Shown here piece after piece: positions 3 through 58,431 of a stretch of 64,000 bases of DNA. Source of the DNA: Rhodopirellula sp. (lineage in GTDB: Bacteria; Planctomycetota; Planctomycetia; Pirellulales; Pirellulaceae); assembly GCA_002701385.1 (NCBI GenBank), contig NZVD01000063.1, positions 11,675 to 75,674 on the forward strand, in the 5' to 3' direction. Numbering within the stretch: position 1 is the first letter of the stretch; every line of letters starts with the position of its first letter. The notes beneath the pieces were generated by a model, which saw only the letters and a program-made list of their open reading frames with translations, was not told where the DNA came from and made no database searches. The position numbers and the translations under genes were made by a program.

Positions 3-1220
3 GGGTATGGTGATCTTGGTTGTTATGGACAACAAACCATTACCACTCCGTACATCGATAAACTCGCTAAAGAAGGCATGCGATTTACCGACCACTATGC
101 CGGTCACACTGTCTGCCGTCCATCCCGCCTGGTGTTACTCACAGGTAAACACAGCGGTAATACGCCTATCCATGGTAATACACAGTATTACTTTCCCGCC
201 AATACTCAAACGGTCACCACGCTACTCAAACAAAAAGGGTATGTAACAGGGGGCGTCGGAAAGTGGGCACTCGGGACTCCTCAAACAACGGGAGTACCGT
301 CTAAACAAGGCTTTGATTATTGGTTCGGCTATTTAGATCAGAGTCGCGCTCATAACTTTTATCCCGAGTATTTATGGGAAAACGAAACCAAGTTCCCACT
401 CAGTGGGAACGTCGAAGGCCCGAAGAAAAATGTATCCACTGAACGAGTCACTTATTCGCATGACGTAATGCATGAAAAGGCATTGGCTTTTATTCGTGAA
501 AATGCTCACGAACCGTTTTTCTTGCAAGCTCACTACACGATCCCTCACACAAATAACGAAGGAGGCCGGGCAACTGGTAATGGTCAGGAAGTACCAGATT
601 ACGGTGCCTATGCCAGTAAGGACTGGCCCGCTCCGGAACGTGGCTTTGCAGCGATGATCTCTCGACTGGACAGTGATATCGGTGAGATGATGAAGCTCTT
701 GCAGGAACTCAATATTGATCGTCGGACATTAGTGATCTTCACCTCAGATAATGGGCCACATCAGGAAGGCGGGCATAAGATGGAGTTCTTTAATTCCAAC
801 GGAAACTTGCGAGGTTTCAAACGCGATCTTTATGATGGTGGAATCCGAGTACCCATGATTGCGCGATGGCCGGGCGTCATTCAGCCAGATACTACTTCGA
901 ATCATCCGTCTGCCTTTTGGGATTTCCTGCCGACTGCCTGCGAACTGGCCAATATCGAACCACCCGCCGACACGGATGGGATCTCCTATCTACCAACACT
1001 GTTAGGAAAGCCTCAGGACCAACACGAATATTTGTTCTGGCGAGCAGGGCAAAAATTTGCTGTCCGCCGAGGCGAGTGGAAAGCCGTGCGTCTTAATGAC
1101 AAGGCGGCCGTGGAGCTGTATAACCTGAAAGAGGATTTGGGTGAACAAAATAATCTTGCCAGTAAACACCCTGAATTAGTGGGTGAATTTGAAGCCATCA
1201 TTGCAAAACATCGGCAATAA
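3..1220 (+). CDS. Sulfatase (arylsulfatase family), 5'-truncated by the window edge
   Basis: Hydrolyses sulfate esters, probably on polysaccharides, outside the cytoplasm. The frame is open from base 3, and the first visible residues (GYGDLGCYG) are the conserved region that follows the N-terminal metal-binding aspartates, so the true start lies left of the window. The CRPSR motif (Cys at 114-116) is the Cys-type site that is matured to formylglycine. Further on are the metal-site segment TSDNGPH and GGIRVPMIARWPG, both typical of the family. About 405 residues are visible and the C-terminus is complete. It is followed after 50 bases by a membrane protein gene on the same strand. The family call is sure; the substrate is unknown. 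Confidence 0.95.
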   Translation, partial: GYGDLGCYGQQTITTPYIDKLAKEGMRFTDHYAGHTVCRPSRLVLLTGKHSGNTPIHGNTQYYFPANTQTVTTLLKQKGYVTGGVGKWALGTPQTTGVPSKQGFDYWFGYLDQSRAHNFYPEYLWENETKFPLSGNVEGPKKNVSTERVTYSHDVMHEKALAFIRENAHEPFFLQAHYTIPHTNNEGGRATGNGQEVPDYGAYASKDWPAPERGFAAMISRLDSDIGEMMKLLQELNIDRRTLVIFTSDNGPHQEGGHKMEFFNSNGNLRGFKRDLYDGGIRVPMIARWPGVIQPDTTSNHPSAFWDFLPTACELANIEPPADTDGISYLPTLLGKPQDQHEYLFWRAGQKFAVRRGEWKAVRLNDKAAVELYNLKEDLGEQNNLASKHPELVGEFEAIIAKHRQ

Positions 1221-19516: not shown

Positions 19517-19540
19517 ACCGACTCCGCCGAAGCGGTCGTT
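19517..19540 (-). terminator. Hairpin directly after the SUMF1-fold gene
   Basis: On the minus strand, the CGACCGC...GCGGAGTCG stem has a TTCG loop and starts at the stop codon. Only a short GTTTA follows, so termination would be weak; RNA 3'-end protection is also possible. Confidence 0.45.
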
Positions 19541-20607
19541 TATTCTTCAGGGTTGTCTTTGTCAAACTGAAGTGGAAGTGCCTTATCCCAGATTGCTTCC
19601 AGAGCTTCTTTACTTGGAGATTTCAGAGGTCGTACTATCCGTAACCCAACATGAAGAGCATCGGTGTGATACCAAATACTCTGCGGTTCCTGCGGATCCT
19701 GGTACTTCCAGTCTTCGGTCGATCCGAGCCGAGCCGCACTACGTAGTAATTCCGGATCATCCTGCCAACTGCCGCCTCGTACAACTCGCGGATATAATTT
19801 CAGCGGAACATTAACCGGATTGAGTGCTCCAGACTTCGTCTTACCATAAAACTCGGTATCATGCTGATCCAGCACCCATTCAGCCACATTGCCATGCATG
19901 TCGAATAACCCCCAAGGGTTTGGTAGTTTTTTACCTACCTTTTGATATTTGTCGTTCGAGTTTTCGTAATACCAGGCATAGTCATCAATCTTCGAGGCGT
20001 CATCACCCCAGCTATATCGAGTCGTCGTGCCTGCTCGACATGCATATTCCCATTCTGCTTCTGTCGGCAGCCGATAGTACCGTCCCGTTTTGGCTGACAG
20101 CCATTTACAGAAGGTTCGGGCCGCATGCTGTGTCATGCTGATCGCGGGATAGCCCCGTTTCCCCATTCCAAAAGTCATATCTGTATACGGTGCGGTCGGC
20201 TTGGAGATTGTCAGCGGGTCGGCAAGCTTATCTCGTTCATTCGCTGCACGGCCATACACTTTACGAATTTGTATATCGATGTCCGACATCCAAACTTCGT
20301 AAACATCCCAGGTTATTTCAGTCTTACCCATCCAAAACGGCTCAATGGCAATCTCGTGCTGAGGGCCTTCATCATCGCCACGACCTTCTTCATCATCAGG
20401 GCTACCCATGATGAACTTACCGCTGGGGATTGGTACAAGTTCGATTTTATTTCGGGTATGTTCGACTACTTCTGCATAAGGCTTCATCTCCTTTTCAGAG
20501 GAAGCTACGCTTTCAGGAATTTCAATCGGTGCCGGGTGATCGAGCTGAGCCTGTACTGCCGAAGTCAGAAGGGTAATTACGAGAAGGGTAGAACTGAGGG
20601 ATTTCAT
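19540..20607 (-). CDS. Secreted SUMF1/FGE-fold protein without the catalytic cysteine pair
   Basis: A 355-residue protein with a signal peptide ([16 protein letters not shown]). The formylglycine-generating-enzyme fold is clear: [61 protein letters not shown] and [20 protein letters not shown]. True FGE enzymes carry two cysteines shortly after RGGS; here the segment has none, so it probably does not mature sulfatases. Proteins of this fold are also used as ligand-binding or non-sulfatase modifying domains. The fold is certain; the role is open. Confidence 0.9.
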
Positions 20608-42953: not shown

Positions 42954-43952
42954 ATGATACAAACCATGCTGGTGATCGGTGCCATAGATCCTTGGGCAAT
43001 CGGAGGCCTCTCCATTCTTGTCATTGTGATGCTTGGATTAGTCATCATCGCCATCAAATATGGCTCTCTCTGGTTTGAAGGATATAACTGCGGAGCTCAA
43101 ATAGGATTATTTGAATTGGTCATGATGGGGTTACGGCAAGTTAATCAAAAATCCATCATGAAAGCTAAAATCAAAGCGGTACAAGCGAACCTCAGAACAG
43201 AGAAGGACAAAACACCCGGTGTGGAAATCGACGGGACGTTTGTCACAACACAACGACTTGAAGCCCATTATTTAGCCGGTGGTGATGTGACCAAAATCAT
43301 TGAAGCCCTAGTTGCCTCTAAGAATGCCGGGATTGCGTTGGAATTCGATCAGGCTGCGGCTATCGATTTGGCCGGACGTGATGTAGTCGAGGCTGTGCGA
43401 ACCAGCGTTGATCCTAAAGTCATCAGCTGTCCCGACCCTCAACGAAGTGGAAAGGAATTCTTAAGTGCTGTTGCGAAAGACGGGGTTGAGCTCAAGGTGC
43501 ATGCACAGGTCACTGTCAGGACCAATCTGGAACAATTAATCGGTGGGGCCACAGAAGAGACGATCATCGCTCGTGTCGGTGAAAGTATTATCTCCGCCAT
43601 TGGCTCGGCTACTTTACATTCGGATGTGCTTCAAAATCCAGGAATGATCACTAAAGCAGTACTCGAACGAGGCCTGGATTCGCAAACCGCTTTTGAGATC
43701 GTGTCCATCGATATTGCCAGCGCCATTGTCGGTGAAAATATTGGCTCGCGTCTTCAAGTCGATCAGGCTGAAGCGGATACTCGTGTGGCGCGAGCCAAAG
43801 CGGAGCAACGGCGTGCTGAAGCCATCGCCGTAGAGCAGGAACAAAAAGCGGAAGTGGTCGGTAATCAGGCCACACTCATTCAGGCGGAAGCAGAAGTCCC
43901 CAAAGCAATGGCGGCTGCATTTCGAACTGGCAACATTGATACCAAGGGATAA
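42954..43952 (+). CDS. floA: Flotillin-like protein FloA
   Basis: A 332-residue membrane-anchored scaffold of functional membrane microdomains. One N-terminal hydrophobic helix (GGLSILVIVMLGLVIIAIKYG) anchors it, followed by the SPFH-like region (EIDGTFVTTQRLEAHYLAGGDV, DLAGRDVVEAVRTSV, VKAQVTVRTNLEQLIGG-like VHAQVTVRTNLEQLIGG) and a C-terminal coiled coil rich in Ala/Glu (ADTRVARAKAEQRRAEAIAVE, shown in part). The length and order match bacterial FloA/YqfA. The next gene starts four bases after its stop. Confidence 0.95.
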   Translation: MIQTMLVIGAIDPWAIGGLSILVIVMLGLVIIAIKYGSLWFEGYNCGAQIGLFELVMMGLRQVNQKSIMKAKIKAVQANLRTEKDKTPGVEIDGTFVTTQRLEAHYLAGGDVTKIIEALVASKNAGIALEFDQAAAIDLAGRDVVEAVRTSVDPKVISCPDPQRSGKEFLSAVAKDGVELKVHAQVTVRTNLEQLIGGATEETIIARVGESIISAIGSATLHSDVLQNPGMITKAVLERGLDSQTAFEIVSIDIASAIVGENIGSRLQVDQAEADTRVARAKAEQRRAEAIAVEQEQKAEVVGNQATLIQAEAEVPKAMAAAFRTGNIDTKG

Positions 43953-43956
43953 GACT

Positions 43957-44766
43957 ATGCATTCTCGAAGACTCCTTCTTACTATTTGTATTCCTCTGGT
44001 TCTTACGACGATGACACAGGCTGACGACATTACAGAGAACCAACAAAAGCTCTTAAAAACGTTTCGCGGCGAGTTTGTGAAAATTACTCCCGGCAAAGGA
44101 AAGTTTCCAAAGTCCTTTGAAATGGGAAGCGATTCAGCAACTCAATCTCCAGTACACAAAGTCACTTTCGATTACTCGTTCTCGGTCGCTAAATACGAAG
44201 TTCCTCAGAATCTCTGGGAAGCTGTCATGGGCAGTAATCCGTCTCGCTGGAAGGGCCCACGTAACTCGGTAGAGGAGCTCAGTTTCGCCGATGCAGAAGC
44301 ATTCTGCAAAAAGGCTACTCAAATGATGCAGCAATTGAACTTGATTGAAAAGAATGAAGCCATTCGCCTCCCCTCTGAATCTGAGTGGGAATATTTTGCG
44401 AGAGCGGGAACGACAACGGCGTACAGTTTTGGCGACGATGTGAAACAACTGACGGATTATGGTTGGTTCACTGGGAATGCAGCAGGCAACGACCCTCCGG
44501 TCGGCGTCAAAAAACCAAACGCCTGGGGGCTCTATGATATCCATGGATACCTTTGGGAGTGGTGTACCGATACCGGCAGCGAATCCTATAAAGACGCTCC
44601 GATTGATGGCAGTCCCCGAATCGACTCAAAATCAAAAATGCGTATTCTACGTGGTGGAAGCTGGAAAGACGCGGCTGACAAATTGACCAGTAGCTATCGG
44701 TCTATTGTCCCTGCTGACTTAAAAGATGATGCCGTTGGACTCCGTTGTATCTTAGTAACGAAATAA
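43957..44766 (+). CDS. Secreted SUMF1/FGE-fold protein without the catalytic cysteine pair
   Basis: A 269-residue protein with a signal peptide (RRLLLTICIPLVLTTMTQA). The FGE fold is shown by GSDSATQSPVHKVTFDY, VAKYEVPQNLWEAVMG, IRLPSESEWEYFARAG, WGLYDIHGYLWEW and MRILRGGSWKDAADK. As in the protein at 19540, the stretch after RGGS has no cysteine pair, so it is not expected to make formylglycine. ATG 43957 is chosen for the signal peptide and AAGGGA upstream. It is in a run with floA before it and an oxidoreductase after it. Confidence 0.9.
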   Translation: MHSRRLLLTICIPLVLTTMTQADDITENQQKLLKTFRGEFVKITPGKGKFPKSFEMGSDSATQSPVHKVTFDYSFSVAKYEVPQNLWEAVMGSNPSRWKGPRNSVEELSFADAEAFCKKATQMMQQLNLIEKNEAIRLPSESEWEYFARAGTTTAYSFGDDVKQLTDYGWFTGNAAGNDPPVGVKKPNAWGLYDIHGYLWEWCTDTGSESYKDAPIDGSPRIDSKSKMRILRGGSWKDAADKLTSSYRSIVPADLKDDAVGLRCILVTK

Positions 44767-50877: not shown

Positions 50878-53800
50878 TTATTCCATATATAGGAACTGAT
50901 TTGATGTAAGTAATGCCTGACAATAGTTCGTCATAGCTTGCTCAAATGGTGATTCATTCCCAGATTCAATGAGAAGTACCACTTGTTGCTGGATAAATTC
51001 CAACGACAACGCGACTTCCTGAGTCGTTGGCAATCTGCCATAAGCCAACTGCCAGCCATAGGCTAGTTGCTCAGGAATCGTTGCCTTTAATTCATAAGCA
51101 CTCAAATCCAAAGGACCGTGGAAATCGGCTTCGGAATCCCATGCTTGCTTGGATTCCGATTCGAGAACGCTGATTTTATAAACGTTGGAAAATGAATCTG
51201 ATGTGTGGTTGTCTATCATATCCACTATGGCATCCAGTGTATCACCGGGTTCGACATCCACTGTGATATCGTAGTCCTGCCCGCCATGTTTGACACTCCA
51301 TTGTCCTAGCTGGCCGACACGGCTACTATAAAGCGTCAGCCGAACACCATCACCATTATCAGATGGATGATGAACATTTCCTTTGATCTGCACCTTCCCT
51401 TTGATCGGAGAAGTCCAACGACGGATGGGGCTTAAATGCAGAGAGCCCGTATGGCCACTTGTCTTATTGAGGAACGAAAAGCCCAGTTTCTCATCTGGTA
51501 CTTTCTCACCACCCTTCCAGGTATTACTGCCAAAAAACGGGTAGGGCGTAAAGACAACCGGTGCAATCTCCGATTCGACTTGCTGGTTCACATGGCCGTA
51601 ACCGTAAGACCATGGATTCCCATTGGATAAAGCATTTTCAGGAAGGACCAAATTTAGGCCTTCGATAATGGAAGAGTCCACTTTGCCTTGTGCTTCTTGA
51701 TTGAGCCGAGTGGCGAAAGATGAAGCGAATTGAAGAATGAAATCACTATTCATCATCATCAATGATTGAGTGGCCACTGTGGAACTATCCCGTTGTGTGC
51801 AATTAACCTCCATCGCCGGAGCATCAAACGCTTTAAGCAATGCTACAGGCTCAGTACGCTTCATTTGCAAATAAACACTACGACGCTGTACATCACCAGC
51901 GATGATGACCTGTCCGGACGTGTCTTTTCCAACCATAACCGGTGCTCCGAACGATGTGCCATCCAACTTACCGCTGACAGCAAGAATCGAATCACGGATT
52001 GCTTCCGCATCGAGTCGCTTCACTGGGAAGTGTGAGTAGAGCTGATTACCACCATCGACTTGGTCACCTTCAGGTGTACGGAGGGATTCCTGCAGGTAAA
52101 CCGTTGAGGTCATCAATACACGGTGAAGATGCTTCAAGCTCCAGCCTTTTGCCATAAATTCATCCGCTAACCAATCCAATACTTCTGGCTGAGTCGGCAG
52201 TGAACCCAGTTTTCCAAATTCGCCAGGGGTGTCAACAATCCCTGTTCCAAAGTGATGCATCCAGAACCGATTGACCAAAACACGAGCGACTAGTGGATGC
52301 CGACCACTAGTTAACCAACGAGCGTATTGCAGTCGGCGACCGGTGGTTGGTGCGTCTGCAGCGTTATCTTTGATGGCAAAAGGGCTATCTGCAGGAGCTG
52401 CCACAGTTAGACCACCTGGTTTCACTTCGTGTTGAGGCTGACGATAATCTCCACGATAAAACAGGAAGGTAGGATCCACTTCCTTAGCCTGCTTGGTCAA
52501 AGCTCGAACATATTCATGAACTGGTTTGGTCGCCCTTACCTTGGCAACTTCTGCATCTAGCTTCTTCAATTCATCTGCATGGCCCTGATTGTATTGATAC
52601 AACACACCTGGGTTGAGGTTTCCAATATTTGGATTCTTGGCAAGCAATTCCTTTTGTTCCGCAGTCCGTTTATCTCCAGCTGCTCGGTAAGCCGCTTCGA
52701 GTGGTTCGCGTAAGGCTTCATCAACCTTTTCAAGTTCAGCAGCCAGAGCCAAATCCATGTATTCAGTCTGCTTAGCATTCCTGGCGGTCACCATCTCTTG
52801 CGCCTGGGATTCAATCTCGGCAGCCTTCGCATGGTCTTCATCTGTATACAACGAGACAGCTCGATTCCCAGGCACCTTCCAACGCTTCGGATTTAAGGCC
52901 GGTTCGAATACTGCTCGTAGCCGATAATAATCTTCCTGGGATATGGGGTCGTAACGATGGTCGTGACATTGGGCACAACCAACACTCATACCCAGTAAAC
53001 CTGTAGACACAATCTTCACTGTGTCGATGACAACCTGATTACGCGTCTCATCCGAGTTAGACTGCCCCGTACCATCGGCGGCCATGCGTAAATAACCTGT
53101 TGCCGTGAGCTTATCAATTTCCTGTGTTGTCATATTCTTGTAAGGTGGCTCGACTAACTCATCTCCGGCTAACTGCCATGTAATGAATTGATCGAACGGC
53201 ATATCCGCCGCAATAGCCCTAATCACCCAGTCTCGATACTTATAGGCCCACTGTCGATTCGCGTCACTGTTACTGGCTCCTTCTGAGTCGGCATACCCGG
53301 CAACATCCAACCAATGCCGTCCCCATCGTTCACCATATTGTGGGCTCTCCAGCAAACGGTCGAGGACTTTTGTCCAGGCTTCCGGCGTATCATCGGCAAG
53401 AAACGCAGTTAGCTCATCATGGGTTGGGGGGAGCCCGGTTAGTGCGAGTGACGCTCGACGAAGCAATGTGGACTTATCGGCTTCCGGAGCAAATGACAGA
53501 TCCTGCTTTTCCATCCGGGCCAATAAGAGTGCATCAATCGGTGTTCGCACTCGATCCACGTTTTCTACTGTCGGTACAGTAGGCCGACGGATGGGCTGAA
53601 AGGCCCAGTAAGATCGTTCTTCAGGCGTCACACCCAGTCCTGGACCGATCGTGGCAGGTTCAGGACGTGATGTTTTGGCGCCTTCAAGAATCCACTTCCG
53701 GATCGTAGCAATCTGCTCATCCGGTACCCGATGTGAACCTGGTGGCATTTCGCCACTCACCATTCGTTCAAGCAAATAGCTTTCATCTGGCTTGCCTTTA

Positions 53801-54045
53801 ATCAATGCCGGTCCGAATTCACCTCCCTTTTCCATCAATCGAACTAAACGCAGGTCCAATTCTCCTTTCACTTCGGCTTCCGCGCCATGACAGTCGTAAC
53901 AATGAGCTCGGAAAATCGGACGGATATGCTTTTCAAATGTCAACGCTTCATCGGCCTGAGTAAAGGGCGAATAGAGTCCGATTAATGTCGACAGAAAGGC
54001 CAAGCAAAGAGATCGTGTTAGCGTAAAGGGATAACGCAATTTCAT
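50878..54045 (-). CDS. PSCyt1/DUF1549/DUF1553 planctomycete cytochrome protein with inserted beta domain
   Basis: A 1055-residue exported protein; signal LTRSLCLAFLSTLIGLYSP. A cytochrome c-like domain has HCYDCHG near residue 50 and a MPPG motif, and the following DUF1549 domain has RRASLALTGLPPTHDELTAF and RWGRHWLDVAGYADS and then a second heme motif CAQCHDHRYDP. A charged helical stretch leads to DUF1553 (HPLVARVLVNRFWMHHFG). A segment at about residues 805-965 (from NPWSYGYGHVN) is a carbohydrate-binding-like beta domain inserted in the middle of DUF1553. ATG 54045 is used because the frame upstream of it contains a terminator. Redox attack on sugars is supposed but unproven. Confidence 0.93.
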   Translation of the reverse strand: MKLRYPFTLTRSLCLAFLSTLIGLYSPFTQADEALTFEKHIRPIFRAHCYDCHGAEAEVKGELDLRLVRLMEKGGEFGPALIKGKPDESYLLERMVSGEMPPGSHRVPDEQIATIRKWILEGAKTSRPEPATIGPGLGVTPEERSYWAFQPIRRPTVPTVENVDRVRTPIDALLLARMEKQDLSFAPEADKSTLLRRASLALTGLPPTHDELTAFLADDTPEAWTKVLDRLLESPQYGERWGRHWLDVAGYADSEGASNSDANRQWAYKYRDWVIRAIAADMPFDQFITWQLAGDELVEPPYKNMTTQEIDKLTATGYLRMAADGTGQSNSDETRNQVVIDTVKIVSTGLLGMSVGCAQCHDHRYDPISQEDYYRLRAVFEPALNPKRWKVPGNRAVSLYTDEDHAKAAEIESQAQEMVTARNAKQTEYMDLALAAELEKVDEALREPLEAAYRAAGDKRTAEQKELLAKNPNIGNLNPGVLYQYNQGHADELKKLDAEVAKVRATKPVHEYVRALTKQAKEVDPTFLFYRGDYRQPQHEVKPGGLTVAAPADSPFAIKDNAADAPTTGRRLQYARWLTSGRHPLVARVLVNRFWMHHFGTGIVDTPGEFGKLGSLPTQPEVLDWLADEFMAKGWSLKHLHRVLMTSTVYLQESLRTPEGDQVDGGNQLYSHFPVKRLDAEAIRDSILAVSGKLDGTSFGAPVMVGKDTSGQVIIAGDVQRRSVYLQMKRTEPVALLKAFDAPAMEVNCTQRDSSTVATQSLMMMNSDFILQFASSFATRLNQEAQGKVDSSIIEGLNLVLPENALSNGNPWSYGYGHVNQQVESEIAPVVFTPYPFFGSNTWKGGEKVPDEKLGFSFLNKTSGHTGSLHLSPIRRWTSPIKGKVQIKGNVHHPSDNGDGVRLTLYSSRVGQLGQWSVKHGGQDYDITVDVEPGDTLDAIVDMIDNHTSDSFSNVYKISVLESESKQAWDSEADFHGPLDLSAYELKATIPEQLAYGWQLAYGRLPTTQEVALSLEFIQQQVVLLIESGNESPFEQAMTNYCQALLTSNQFLYME

Positions 54046-54164
54046 AACATCAGGGTGGGCTAGGGAAGGATGCGAAGGGGTGGGATTCGTTTTCTTTATT
54101 TTAATCCAAAGCCGCTTATCCTGCATCGCTGAATCATAGTCGATTTCGACAGTCAGTCGTCGCG

Positions 54165-54206
54165 CAACAAAAACCCACTTATCCGGATTCCAAACAAGTG
54201 GGTTCA
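54165..54206 (-). terminator. Rho-independent terminator of the tandem sulfatase gene
   Basis: On the minus strand AACCCACTT pairs with AAGTGGGTT across a 15-base loop, and TTTTTG follows. In plus coordinates the arms are 54196-54204 and 54172-54180. Confidence 0.88.
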
Positions 54207-54235
54207 ATCGTATTCAAATTTCCAGACTCGGCTAG

Positions 54236-57031
54236 CTAGTCCTTTCGATGGTCCCAATGGCTGTACAGCAATTCTGTCAGCTCTTGAACCAACTCAGGGT
54301 TTGTCGCAGCACGGTTATCCGTTTCAGTGGGATCCACTCGCAGGTTATATAGCTGTGGACCTGCGCCTAAGTCTGGATGTGAGAAAGTATATCGATTAAC
54401 AATACCGTCGTAAGAGAGCAATAGTTTCCAGTCCCCTTTGATTACCCATCGATAGAGCAAGGTTTTTGTACTGTCGTTAAGGTCGGCAATGTCATGTGCA
54501 TACGATTCTCCAAATAATGCCTGATGGGAAGCTGTACGTCCCTGAGCCACTTCGACCAAGTTCTTTCCAGCCATTAATTCCGTCTTCTCCAATCCAGCCA
54601 ATTCAAGGATAGTTGGAGCAATGTCAATGGAGCTGACCAGTTGTCCGCGGTTACCCGGGCGAACCTGACCTGGCCAACGAACCATGATCGGAGTTCTTGT
54701 CCCACCTTCGTTCGGGGACTGCTTTGACTTAGGGGCATAGCTTGATCGCCATTTCGGCCCCAAATCCATGTCCGGTGTCCGTTGAATCCATCCGTTGTCA
54801 GTCACATAAATAACAACGGTTTCTTTACGAAGCCCTTCATCGTCGATGATCCCCAACAATTCGCCACAGGTTTCATCAAACCATTCGCACATTGCATAGT
54901 ATTTAGCCAAGGGCAGCGGTCGGCCGTCTTGCTGGTACTTCTTCAGCAATCGCTCTGGTGGATTGTGAGGCGTGTGGGGTAGGAACGGAGCATACCAAAT
55001 AAAGAATGGTTTCTCTTCTTCCTTTGATTCCTTGATGAACGAGTGGATCGGCTCTAGTCCCTGTCGCCCGATCTTTAGGCCCTGATCACCATGACGCCCA
55101 CCTCGTTTCGGATCGCCATGCGTCATTCCATGAGTGAAGCCTCCACGCGAATAATGACCTTCCCACCATTTGCCGCTTTGATGGCTCAAATAGCCTTTCT
55201 CCTGCAACATTCGGGGAACCGTATCGATGCGATCAATATTGGCGATCAACTGGTTCCGCAATTCCTGATAAGCTCCTGGCTTTGCGTCCGGGCCAAGGGG
55301 TGTGGGGTCATTGCCGGTAATCCGATGGTCTCGTGGATAAAGCCCAGACACTAAGGTTGCTAAGGAGCTGCGACAAAGTGCCTGAGGTACGTAACCACGA
55401 GTAAATGTCGCGCTTTCACGTGCCAATTGATCAAGGTGAGGTGTCTTAATGACCGGATGAGCCATAAAACTATAATCCGTCCAAGCCTGATCGTCAGAAA
55501 TAATTAACACCACATTGGGATTTGCTGGAAGCTGTGGTTTGGCTTTCGGCTTTGGTGGTTGTGGTTTAGATGCCGGCTTCGCCTGTGTTTGTTTTTGTTC
55601 CTGCGCCTTCTGTCTGAGGTAATTATTGGTCGGGACTAGCTCATAGCTATATTGACCACCATAACCATCACGTAACTCGTTAGAACGCTTGCGCATCTTT
55701 TGTAACTGCGACTTGAATTTAGGATCCTTAGCTAGATTTACCAACTGATCAGGATCCGCTTCCAAATCGTGTAAGAACTCGTAGTCATCCTGAAAGTAAT
55801 TTGCATAAACCCAACGTTGGTCACGAACGCCTTCCCATTTAGGAATCCGTCCGGGTACATCCATTAGGTGTTCACAGAAGAAATCCGTACGCCATTTCTT
55901 GGGCACGTTTCCAGACACCAATCCGTTTAAGTCTTCTCCCTGATACTGCGAAGGTAATTCAATGCCAGCCGCACCTACGAACGTGCTTGCTAAATCCAGA
56001 TTTAAAACGACTTCATCTCGCACTTGCCCCTTAGCAGAGTCCTCCACTCGCGGATCTGAAATAATCATGGGCACTCTTAGCGATTCTTCATAATGGGACC
56101 ACTTGCCCGCAAATCCTCGTTGGGCCATGTAGTAACCGTTGTCGCCGGTATAAATGACAATCGTATTTTCATCCAGCCCGAGTTGTTCCAGAGTATTTAC
56201 AACTCGCCCTACAACATGGTCGATGCCACTGAGCATCCGGTAGTAAGAGCGAATGTTCTTTTCGTACTTCTCCTTGGTATCCCACCGCCAGAAGAAACGC
56301 TCTCGATTTAAGCTGGTCCGCAAGAACTCAGGCTGACTGGCGAAAATCTCAGGGTCATTTAGTCTTGGGGCCGGAATTTCAATGTCTTCATACATGCCAT
56401 CCATCACTTTGGGCCATGGAAAGTGATCCACTTTGTCATTGTCTTCAGCATGGGTCGCATTGAAGCTTACCGAAAGCATGAAGGCTTCATCTTTGTTTGC
56501 CTTAATGAATTCGATGGCCGCATCGCCCGCCAATTGAGTGGTATGACGTAAAGTGCCGTCGGGCTGTTTTTTGAAGTACTTATTGCGATTGATCGGATGG
56601 AAGAAGTCAAAGGCTTGGTTGGTTCCGCCGGAGAAGCCGACACCGAATTTCCCAACAAATCCGGTCTTATACCCAGACTGTTTCATAACCACTGGATAAG
56701 AACTAGTCACAAAGTCTTGCGCAATCGCCGGCGTACCAAATGTATAGTGATGACTGCGTTCCACCATGCCGGTAAATATCGTGGCCCGGCTAGCGGCGCA
56801 AATAGACGTTGTCACAAAGGCATTGGTAAATCTTGTGCCCTGACTCGCAAGCTTATCCAGATTGGGAGTCTTCACCAAGGGATGTCCATAGCAACTCAGC
56901 TGATCATTGCGTTGGTCATCTGCTAAAAAGAAGACGATATTTGGACGCTCTGCGGCACGCAATTGCACAGAAAATACAGTTGTTAATACAAGGACGCTTA
57001 GAATAGTGCGTCGAATTAGCTTGCTCGTCAT
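54236..57031 (-). CDS. Tandem sulfatase: two complete sulfatase domains in one polypeptide
   Basis: A 931-residue exported protein with a signal peptide (TILSVLVLTTVFSVQLRA). Domain 1 (about 28-470) has FFLADDQRNDQLSCYG, the formylglycine site SICAASRAT with Cys78, and YTGDNGYYMAQRGFAGKW. A linker of Lys, Pro and Gln (about 474-504) leads to domain 2 (505-931), with LIISDDQAWTDYSFM, a second site ALCRSSLAT with Cys553, and GGTRTPIMVRWPGQ. Both copies keep metal-site aspartates. In domain 2 the position of the motif arginine (CxxSR) is Leu. It is a single gene between two hairpins. The domains probably act on the same sulfated polymer. Confidence 0.95.
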   Translation of the reverse strand: MTSKLIRRTILSVLVLTTVFSVQLRAAERPNIVFFLADDQRNDQLSCYGHPLVKTPNLDKLASQGTRFTNAFVTTSICAASRATIFTGMVERSHHYTFGTPAIAQDFVTSSYPVVMKQSGYKTGFVGKFGVGFSGGTNQAFDFFHPINRNKYFKKQPDGTLRHTTQLAGDAAIEFIKANKDEAFMLSVSFNATHAEDNDKVDHFPWPKVMDGMYEDIEIPAPRLNDPEIFASQPEFLRTSLNRERFFWRWDTKEKYEKNIRSYYRMLSGIDHVVGRVVNTLEQLGLDENTIVIYTGDNGYYMAQRGFAGKWSHYEESLRVPMIISDPRVEDSAKGQVRDEVVLNLDLASTFVGAAGIELPSQYQGEDLNGLVSGNVPKKWRTDFFCEHLMDVPGRIPKWEGVRDQRWVYANYFQDDYEFLHDLEADPDQLVNLAKDPKFKSQLQKMRKRSNELRDGYGGQYSYELVPTNNYLRQKAQEQKQTQAKPASKPQPPKPKAKPQLPANPNVVLIISDDQAWTDYSFMAHPVIKTPHLDQLARESATFTRGYVPQALCRSSLATLVSGLYPRDHRITGNDPTPLGPDAKPGAYQELRNQLIANIDRIDTVPRMLQEKGYLSHQSGKWWEGHYSRGGFTHGMTHGDPKRGGRHGDQGLKIGRQGLEPIHSFIKESKEEEKPFFIWYAPFLPHTPHNPPERLLKKYQQDGRPLPLAKYYAMCEWFDETCGELLGIIDDEGLRKETVVIYVTDNGWIQRTPDMDLGPKWRSSYAPKSKQSPNEGGTRTPIMVRWPGQVRPGNRGQLVSSIDIAPTILELAGLEKTELMAGKNLVEVAQGRTASHQALFGESYAHDIADLNDSTKTLLYRWVIKGDWKLLLSYDGIVNRYTFSHPDLGAGPQLYNLRVDPTETDNRAATNPELVQELTELLYSHWDHRKD

Positions 57032-57132: not shown

Positions 57133-58431
57133 TTAGCCGATCGTCAAGCGATCTTCCCAACCTTCATGATAATCACGCTGCCACAATGCCATCGCTTCTT
57201 CATCATCAAGGATGTGACCGTTCGAGGTGTCGCAATTCAGTATACGACCAACTCGCTGGGAGATATTTCCTAGATGACAGAGCAGGGTACTACGATGGCC
57301 GATTTCAATTTCAGCGTTTAGTCCTTCTGGGTCATTCGCTCGAATGGACTTAACGAGATTATCTATATGTTCCGGCTGACCTTGGCCGCCCGTGACCCGT
57401 TTTACTTCCTTGTTCCCTCGGTCGTAAACGACATAGCCACCACCCCCAAGAAATTCGACCATACCGTTATCACCAAAGACTTTTACAAAGCCTGAACCAT
57501 TTCGATTACAGCTACTGCCCTGCCAAGTAATCTGAGTTTCATTTTCGAATTCGAACGAAACAATTTGAGTGTCTGGTGTTTCTTGGTCGTCATCGAAATA
57601 GTAACGGCCGCCGGTGGAACTAACCGTCTTTGGAAAGTCCACGTTTAATGCCCAACGCGCAATATCCAGAGAATGGATTCCGTTGTTACCAAGCTCGCCG
57701 TTGCCATAGAACCAGACCCAGTGCCAGTTGTAATGAACGAGGTTGTCCTGAAACGGGCGACGTGGAACAGGACCCTGCCAACGATCGTAATCAATGTGCT
57801 CAGGAACTTCGGTATTCTTCCCTTCACCAATAGATGTTCGAGCGCTAAAGTAAACACAGCGAGCGGAATGTACGGTTCCGATCCCTCCGCCATGAATAAA
57901 CTCTATCGCCTCGCGATACGTTGGTGCACTTCGGCGCTGCGTTCCAATCTGTACGCAAACTTTATTTTTGCGAGCAGCGGCAATCTGCATTTCCCCTTCC
58001 CACGGGTTTTGGCAGCATGGCTTTTCTACATAAACGTGCTTACCCGCTTCTGCGGCAACGATGGTTGCCGGAGCATGCCAGTGATTGGGAGCGGCACAAG
58101 CGACGATATCCACTTCGTCATCCTCTACAAATGTTTCCCAGGTAGTGATCGGCTCGGGACGATAGCCCACTTTGCCTTGGATTTCATCCGCAGCCCGCTC
58201 GGCTCGAGTTTTATCCACATCACAAACATATTTAATGACACAGTCACTATGTTTGGAAAACGTATCCGCTAAGCTTCGTCCGCGACTCATTCCCATGACA
58301 GCAACGACGAGTTTGGCATCTTCAGCATTCGCTTCGGCTGTAGAAACCAGAGTGCCGGCTGCAGCAGTTGCGGCTCCCGCTGCTATAAAATCTCGACGCT
58401 TAACATTCTTACTTTGCGCATTGGCAGACAT
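57133..58431 (-). CDS. Tat-exported Gfo/Idh/MocA family oxidoreductase
   Basis: A 432-residue protein. The Tat signal KRRDFIAAGAATAAAGTL is followed by the Rossmann motif VVAVMGMSRGRSLA, where the usual GxGxxG is changed to GMSRGR. The catalytic motif HVYVEKPCCQNPWEGE has the lysine; two cysteines stand beside it, which is uncommon. The substrate half has WFYGNGELGNNGIHSLDIARW. It is probably periplasmic and sugar-related. It is the last gene of the operon that starts beyond the right window edge and ends at the hairpin at 57069. Confidence 0.92.
   Translation of the reverse strand: MSANAQSKNVKRRDFIAAGAATAAAGTLVSTAEANAEDAKLVVAVMGMSRGRSLADTFSKHSDCVIKYVCDVDKTRAERAADEIQGKVGYRPEPITTWETFVEDDEVDIVACAAPNHWHAPATIVAAEAGKHVYVEKPCCQNPWEGEMQIAAARKNKVCVQIGTQRRSAPTYREAIEFIHGGGIGTVHSARCVYFSARTSIGEGKNTEVPEHIDYDRWQGPVPRRPFQDNLVHYNWHWVWFYGNGELGNNGIHSLDIARWALNVDFPKTVSSTGGRYYFDDDQETPDTQIVSFEFENETQITWQGSSCNRNGSGFVKVFGDNGMVEFLGGGGYVVYDRGNKEVKRVTGGQGQPEHIDNLVKSIRANDPEGLNAEIEIGHRSTLLCHLGNISQRVGRILNCDTSNGHILDDEEAMALWQRDYHEGWEDRLTIG

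What the first reader, a model, noticed from the sequence alone, without database searches (positions are those of the whole stretch)
54236..57031. Natural fusion of two sulfatases with different active-site motifs
One 931-residue exported chain carries two full-length sulfatase domains joined by a Lys/Pro/Gln linker. Domain 1 has CAASR, domain 2 CRSSL, which lacks the arginine of the CxPSR/CxASR consensus used by the formylglycine enzyme. Each has its own metal-site residues. This would be a processive or dual-specificity desulfating enzyme for a polymer with two kinds of sulfate ester.
Basis: partly seen in the sequence, partly recalled or inferred. Interest (0 to 1): 0.7.

Follow-up and report, generated by a model that had tools for sequence, protein, structure and literature searches.

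The report
Double sulfatase with an arginine-less half
A marine planctomycete makes one exported protein from two unrelated sulfate-removing enzymes, and the second half belongs to a widespread, strongly conserved sulfatase family that replaced an arginine thought to be indispensable with leucine, so what looked like a dead or one-off enzyme is probably a working one with an unexplained activation step.

Summary
Window 54236-57031 (minus strand) is one intact 931-aa exported ORF with two complete sulfatase domains: D1 (CAASR) and D2 (CRSSL), 24% identical. Twelve related D1-D2 fusions (56-98% identical where aligned), from separate assemblies, rule out an assembly error. D1 matches SulfAtlas S1_25 (nearest structure 6HR5, plus the S1_25-typical KFG). 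D2 belongs to a discrete family found in Planctomycetota and Verrucomicrobiota: all 111 close and 25 more distant members keep the nucleophile Cys, the metal ligands and the catalytic Lys, and all have Leu where S1 sulfatases have Arg. Barbeyron et al. 2016 saw nine such sequences and suspected inactivity; invariance of the rest of the site and dN/dS of 0.02-0.09 argue against that. This genome carries a second fusion of the same two families in the opposite order. Trees reject a single origin for the two orders, and other D2s are fused to two further sulfatase types, so joining this family to another sulfatase is recurrent. Double sulfatases in planctomycetes were already reported (Kim et al. 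2016). 'Dual specificity' is plausible; 'processive' and 'polymer' have no support. Neither this genome nor most of its family encodes a recognisable canonical FGE.

The parts
54236..57031 (-). 931-aa double-sulfatase ORF (D1-D2)
   Evidence: ORF; two PF00884 stretches; orthologues
56951..57031 (-). predicted N-terminal Sec-type signal peptide (residues 1-27, containing KLIRRTILSVLVLTTVFSVQLRAA)
   Evidence: read from the sequence; no signal-peptide program was run
55652..56944 (-). D1, S1_25-like sulfatase domain (residues about 30-460)
   Evidence: (6hr5, E 3.9e-103)
56786..56800 (-). D1 catalytic motif CAASR (residues 78-82)
   Evidence: C and R 36/36 in D1 relatives
55520..55636 (-). Lys/Pro/Gln/Ala-rich linker (residues about 466-504), variable in length and fast-evolving
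54254..55519 (-). D2, Leu-type sulfatase domain (residues about 505-926)
   Evidence: (AF2 pLDDT 85.8, pTM 0.91)
55361..55375 (-). D2 motif CRSSL (residues 553-557); family consensus CRPSL/CxPSL
57133..58431 (-). GFO/IDH/MocA oxidoreductase, gene upstream of the fusion, conserved neighbour in related genomes
50878..54207 (-). PSCyt1/PSCyt2/PSD1 protein, gene downstream of the fusion, conserved neighbour

Best explanation
The gene encodes an exported two-enzyme chain. D1 is an S1_25-type sulfatase that probably removes a 3-O-sulfate from the non-reducing end of a sulfated sugar (a 6-deoxy-hexose such as fucose or rhamnose in the characterised relatives). D2 is an active member of a separate 'CxPSL' sulfatase family that removes a second, different sulfate, probably from the same residue or oligosaccharide, so tethering couples two successive steps. 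In D2 the loss of the +4 Arg is an old, fixed family trait, and the site works with the remaining metal ligands, Lys and His plus family-specific invariant residues (N574, W623, R656, R779). Shown here: the fusion, the fixed Leu, the retained rest of the site, purifying selection on both halves, and the recurrent independent joining of this family to other sulfatases. Inferred: that both domains are active, which bonds they cut, and how the D2 cysteine is activated.
For: Intact ORF and two sulfatase domains. D1: nearest solved structure 6hr5, the S1_25 module of a GH78-sulfatase; GKFG in place of GKWH, the His-to-Gly change described as characteristic of S1_25 (PMC6315715; D1 residues 127-130). 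D2: Cys, Asp513/514, Lys621, His686, His689, Asp745, Asn746, Lys770 and Leu557 identical in 111/111 members and, apart from one His689 exception, in 25/25 more distant members; Leu in all family relatives at 39-57% identity versus Arg in the three hits below 33%. D2 takes the S1 sulfatase fold. dN/dS of close pairs: D2 0.022 and 0.085, D1 0.025 and 0.047; across the genus D2 dN is close to D1 dN while the linker is severalfold higher. Opposite-order fusion of the same two families in this genome and three others, with a single origin rejected in both trees (AU p 2e-52 and 4e-37). D2 also fused to S1_7-like and other sulfatase halves. Gene order around the fusion is conserved.
Against: No activity data for any CxPSL member. 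The Arg is 99% conserved in S1, is held to stabilise formylglycine, and its loss was read as inactivity (PMC5066984). D2 also lacks the PS00149 His, and most of this genus has lost the motif Pro as well. The AF2 model of the whole fusion is poor (pLDDT 53.6), so no domain arrangement can be claimed. SulfAtlas could not be searched. No glycan-degradation genes were seen nearby to point to a substrate.
Confidence: 0.6

Rival explanations
1. D2 is a pseudo-sulfatase: it binds the sulfated substrate or helps D1 fold or dock, but does not hydrolyse esters, because without Arg the cysteine is neither matured nor able to support catalysis.
For: Arg loss was suggested to mean inactivity (PMC5066984). 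D2 is repeatedly fused to Arg-bearing sulfatases, as a helper module would be. The window's D2 has lost both Pro and Arg of the maturation motif.
Against: Cys, all metal ligands and the catalytic Lys are invariant in 136 members, which a binding-only module would not need. Most D2s are not fused to D1 (95 of 111 rows).
Confidence: 0.2
2. D2 is active but does not use formylglycine: the unmodified cysteine (or another activation route) serves as nucleophile, or the family has shifted to another ester such as a phosphate or phosphonate.
For: The recognised FGE motif C-x-P/A-x-R is broken family-wide. An unmodified Cys choline sulfatase has been shown to turn over repeatedly (PMC6189696). No canonical FGE was recognised in this genome.
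Against: The same genome has about 88 other Cys sulfatase domains with an intact Arg that face the same missing maturase, so missing FGE says nothing special about D2. Pro or Ala at +2 is kept in nearly all members outside this genus.
Confidence: 0.15
3. The fusion is an evolutionary accident: planctomycete genomes full of sulfatase genes read through between neighbours, and the pairing carries no functional meaning.
For: The genome has about 90 sulfatase domains and a third, unrelated double sulfatase; other double sulfatases lie next to related genes; such fusions and other multi-domain sulfatases were reported in planctomycetes (PMC4807772).
Against: The same two families joined independently in both orders; maintained across at least three genera with both halves under similar purifying selection.
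Confidence: 0.2

Closest known systems
SulfAtlas S1_25 sulfatases: Formosa agariphila P36_S1_25 (PDB 6HR5, exo-3-O-sulfo-rhamnose) and Wenyingzhuangia SWF4 (exo-3-O-sulfo-fucose)
   Same: D1 aligns full length to 6hr5 (349 bits), keeps C-x-x-x-R, the metal residues and the KFG variant. P36 is also a fusion protein in which both modules act in consecutive steps.
   Different: P36 is fused to a GH78 rhamnosidase; here the partner is another sulfatase. Substrate of D1 not tested.
R-to-I/L S1 sequences noted by Barbeyron et al. 2016 (PMC5066984)
   Same: Same position, same replacement by Leu, same phylum (nine sequences among 4058, Lentisphaerae and Planctomycetes).
   Different: They were dismissed as possibly inactive. 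Here the trait marks a discrete, strongly conserved family in Planctomycetota and Verrucomicrobiota. Whether those nine fall in this family was not checked.
Double-sulfatase genes of Porphyra-associated planctomycetes (Kim et al. 2016, PMC4807772)
   Same: One gene with two unrelated sulfatase domains; their order (arylsulfatase A-like then iduronate-2-sulfatase/choline-sulfatase-like) could correspond to a D2-first fusion.
   Different: Sequence not available here, so identity with either fusion type is unknown; motifs and recurrence were not discussed in the passages read.
S1_16 and S1_19 (carrageenan and related) sulfatases, e.g. 9FO1, PsS1_19B
   Same: Best fold matches of D2 (Foldseek E about 4e-27).
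   Different: Only 20-25% identity, and D2 lacks the Arg of the S1 consensus; D2 cannot be filed in these subfamilies.

Membership tests
S1_25 (for D1) | closest characterised or solved relative is S1_25 over the full domain | tested here: met
   6hr5, 349 bits over residues 3-428 of the query; next best 178 bits
S1_25 (for D1) | C-x-x-x-R catalytic motif and four metal-site residues | tested here: met
   CAASR, D38/D39, D297/N298; Cys and Arg invariant in 36 D1 relatives
S1_25 (for D1) | Gly in place of the conserved His after GK (KFG) | tested here: met
   GKFG at 127-130; trait described in PMC6315715
S1_25 (for D1) | exo-3-O-sulfatase activity on fucose or rhamnose oligosaccharides | not testable with these tools
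   no assay
S1_25 (for D1) | SulfAtlas subfamily assignment by its own HMMs or BLAST | not testable with these tools
   SulfAtlas is not held
S1 formylglycine sulfatases (for D2) | PF00884 match above cut-off and S1 fold | tested here: met
   G000:C14:66267-67193, 153 bits; AF2 model and Foldseek
S1 formylglycine sulfatases (for D2) | Cys or Ser nucleophile and Asp/Asp/Asp/Asn metal site | tested here: met
   C553, D513, D514, D745, N746, 111/111
S1 formylglycine sulfatases (for D2) | Arg at +4 of the nucleophile (99% conserved) | tested here: not met
   Leu in 111/111 and 25/25
S1 formylglycine sulfatases (for D2) | His in the second signature (GKWH, 81% conserved) | tested here: not met
   GKWWEG, Trp623 invariant
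S1 formylglycine sulfatases (for D2) | conversion of the Cys to formylglycine | not testable with these tools
   needs mass spectrometry
Kim et al. 2016 double-sulfatase gene | same gene or orthologue | not tested
   sequence IMG 2643314295 / 2643291516 not available; text only

The most novel reading that the evidence does not exclude
The CxPSL family is a large, overlooked branch of active S1-fold hydrolases whose cysteine is activated or used without the arginine-dependent formylglycine system, and which evolution repeatedly tethers to an ordinary sulfatase to work on doubly sulfated sugars.
Probability: 0.2. Interest if true: 0.7.

Novelty: new variant of a known kind. Interest (0 to 1): 0.45.

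Why it matters
The Arg at +4 is part of the signature (PROSITE PS00523) by which S1 sulfatases are recognised and of the motif used by formylglycine-generating enzyme. A big conserved family without it would mean that signature scans miss or dismiss real enzymes, and that either the maturase or the catalytic site tolerates something the standard model does not. The question is directly testable on a stand-alone member. The opposite-order fusions name a partner (S1_25), which narrows the substrates to try.

Tried and rejected
(1) Assembly artefact or frameshift: rejected, ORF conserved in many independent assemblies. (2) Recent duplication: rejected, 24% identity. (3) Arg lost only in this protein or decaying: rejected. 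(4) The Arg simply moved to +1 (C-R-P-S-L): looked attractive at 111/111, but more distant members carry Cys, Ser or Ala at +1 while keeping Leu. (5) One circularly permuted fusion: rejected; D1 and D2 trees both separate the two orders. (6) A link between the Leu trait and the absence of canonical FGE: not supported on inspection; D2 occurs in genomes with and without it, and the other 88 sulfatase domains here keep the Arg. (7) Substrate from gene neighbourhood: no glycan-enzyme signal. (8) Whole-chain structure: AF2 with ten sequences failed; a mixed alignment aligned D2-only rows to D1 and was not used. (9) D1-D2 gene neighbours without fusion: only a few cases (G012, with a cytochrome c gene between; G037), too few for statistics. 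(10) Phylogeny of D2 used 70 of 111 rows and a quick search, so finer branching inside each fusion clade is uncertain.

Full report
Observation. On the minus strand, 54236..57031 is a single ATG-started ORF of 931 aa without stops; the plus strand of this stretch is not coding. Pfam reports PF00884 and SGSH_C twice each. Motifs are CAASR at 78 and CRSSL at 553. The two halves are 24% identical. An N-terminal signal peptide is visible in the sequence. The linker around 466-504 is rich in Lys, Pro, Gln and Ala and differs in length and sequence between relatives.

The fusion is real and old. The same D1-D2 architecture is found in six further genomes of the genus and in three genomes of two other genera at 56-98% identity, and in additional records of a second collection. 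Flanking genes (GDSL hydrolase, DUF1501, PSCyt protein, fusion, GFO/IDH/MocA oxidoreductase, DUF1501, PPC protein) keep their order in a congener (neighbours there recognised by length and sequence start).

D1. The nearest solved structure is 6hr5, the sulfatase module of a Formosa GH78-sulfatase, over the full domain. This is the S1_25 enzyme P36, an exo-3-O-sulfo-rhamnose sulfatase (PMC8511951; PMC9096561). The other characterised S1_25 enzyme, SWF4, is an exo-3-O-sulfo-fucose sulfatase that acts on 2,3-di-O-sulfated ends before the 2-O-sulfatase SWF1, and its Gly in KFG is described as typical of S1_25 (PMC6315715). D1 has GKFG. I file D1 as S1_25-like; activity is untested.

D2. By sequence it matches only distantly (S1_16, ARSA, GALNS), and its AF2 model (pLDDT 85.8, pTM 0.91) has the S1 fold with roughly 17-26% identity to the best structures. 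In 111 distinct relatives the motif is CRPSL (97), CRPAL (7) or CRSSL (7). Cys, Leu and the catalytic residues D513, D514, K621, H686, H689, D745, N746 and K770 are invariant, as are N574, W623, E624, R646, H647, R656 and R779. A wider draw from the order adds 25 members down to 39% identity: Leu and the core site stay invariant, but +1 is Arg, Cys, Ser or Ala. Below a clear gap (nothing between about 39% and 32% identity) the hits carry Arg. So the Leu defines a discrete family. Within this genome 90 of 90 aligned sulfatase domains have the Cys and 88 the Arg; the two exceptions are both D2.

Is D2 dead? Barbeyron et al. found the Arg in 99% of 4058 sequences and nine planctomycete or lentisphaeral sequences with Ile or Leu, which they thought might be inactive (PMC5066984). 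The invariance of everything else in the site, and low dN/dS in the two pairs where synonymous change is not saturated (D2 0.022 and 0.085; D1 0.025 and 0.047), speak for function. Synonymous sites are saturated in all other pairs, so only dN can be compared there: D2 is close to D1, the linker is severalfold higher. The Pro-to-Ser change in this genus has not released D2 from constraint.

Recurrent joining. This genome has a second fusion at G000:C56:2895-5657 (920 aa, L013) with the order reversed: D2-like (CRPSL) then D1-like (CWVGR). Three more genomes have the reversed type, two of them also carrying the D1-D2 type. In the D1 tree and the D2 tree the two types lie in separate clades with unfused genes between, and holding all fused rows together is rejected (p 2e-52; p 4e-37). 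Three other D2s are followed by an S1_7-like sulfatase half and one by an arylsulfatase-like half (subfamily labels by sequence feel, not by SulfAtlas). In G012 D1 and D2 are separate genes on one strand with a cytochrome c gene between them. I read this as selection for coupling D2 to another sulfatase, although readthrough in sulfatase-rich genomes must supply the raw material: a third double sulfatase without D2 lies at G000:C19, and Kim et al. described double-sulfatase genes in two planctomycetes (PMC4807772).

Maturation. None of the PF03781 proteins of this genome that were read carries the double-cysteine signature of canonical FGE (the signature itself is from my own knowledge of FGE; the two longest, over 1000 aa, were not read in full). 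A DNA pattern for it matches 0 of 37 genomes of the family but 8 of 23 genomes of other families in the order. With a full FGE from the order as query, 18 of 100 family genomes have a match at E 1e-30 or better, this one not. The single SPASM protein does not look like an anaerobic maturase (judged by eye). So how about 90 Cys sulfatase domains are activated here is open; this bears on D2 but is not specific to it. An unmodified Cys sulfatase can turn over slowly (PMC6189696).

Mechanism, graded. Shown: fusion, exact motifs, family-wide Leu, conserved remainder of the site, purifying selection, at least two independent fusions with D1 relatives in opposite orders. Inferred from relatives: D1 removes a 3-O-sulfate from a terminal deoxy-sugar. 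Inferred with less support: D2 is active and removes a second sulfate, and the tether couples both steps. Not supported: processivity, polymer substrate.

Verdict. The fusion is a new example of a reported kind; the more interesting point is the conserved arginine-less family and its habit of pairing with other sulfatases.

Noticed in passing
G000 (whole genome); window 19540-20607(-) and 43936-44766(+): About 90 Cys-type sulfatase domains but no recognisable canonical FGE or anaerobic maturase; the PF03781 proteins read, two of them in the window, lack the FGE cysteine pair. Most genomes of the family look the same.
   Followed up: partly
L198 (G000:C19:507-4016): A third double-sulfatase ORF (about 1170 aa) in the same genome, not of the D1/D2 families.
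   Followed up: partly
L013, L065, L066, L067: The reversed fusion sits beside further sulfatase genes, among them another double sulfatase in L067 (1175 aa), suggesting a heavily sulfated substrate.
   Followed up: partly
L047, L052, L053, L075, L076, L077: A D1 subclade with motif CWVSR forms proteins of about 730-820 aa; the three scanned carry a C-terminal 3-keto-disaccharide hydrolase (PF06439) domain, as does one D2 protein (L074).
   Followed up: partly
L112 and L153: Other D2 fusions: with a putative esterase (PF00756) and with a peptidase M1 domain.
   Followed up: no
window 3-1220 (+): Another sulfatase gene cut by the window's left edge.
   Followed up: no
L189 6150-6626 (G087:C1 near 669000): A 158-aa ORF about 50% identical to D2 lies about 2.5 kb from a single D1 gene: a possible D2 remnant.
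   Followed up: no
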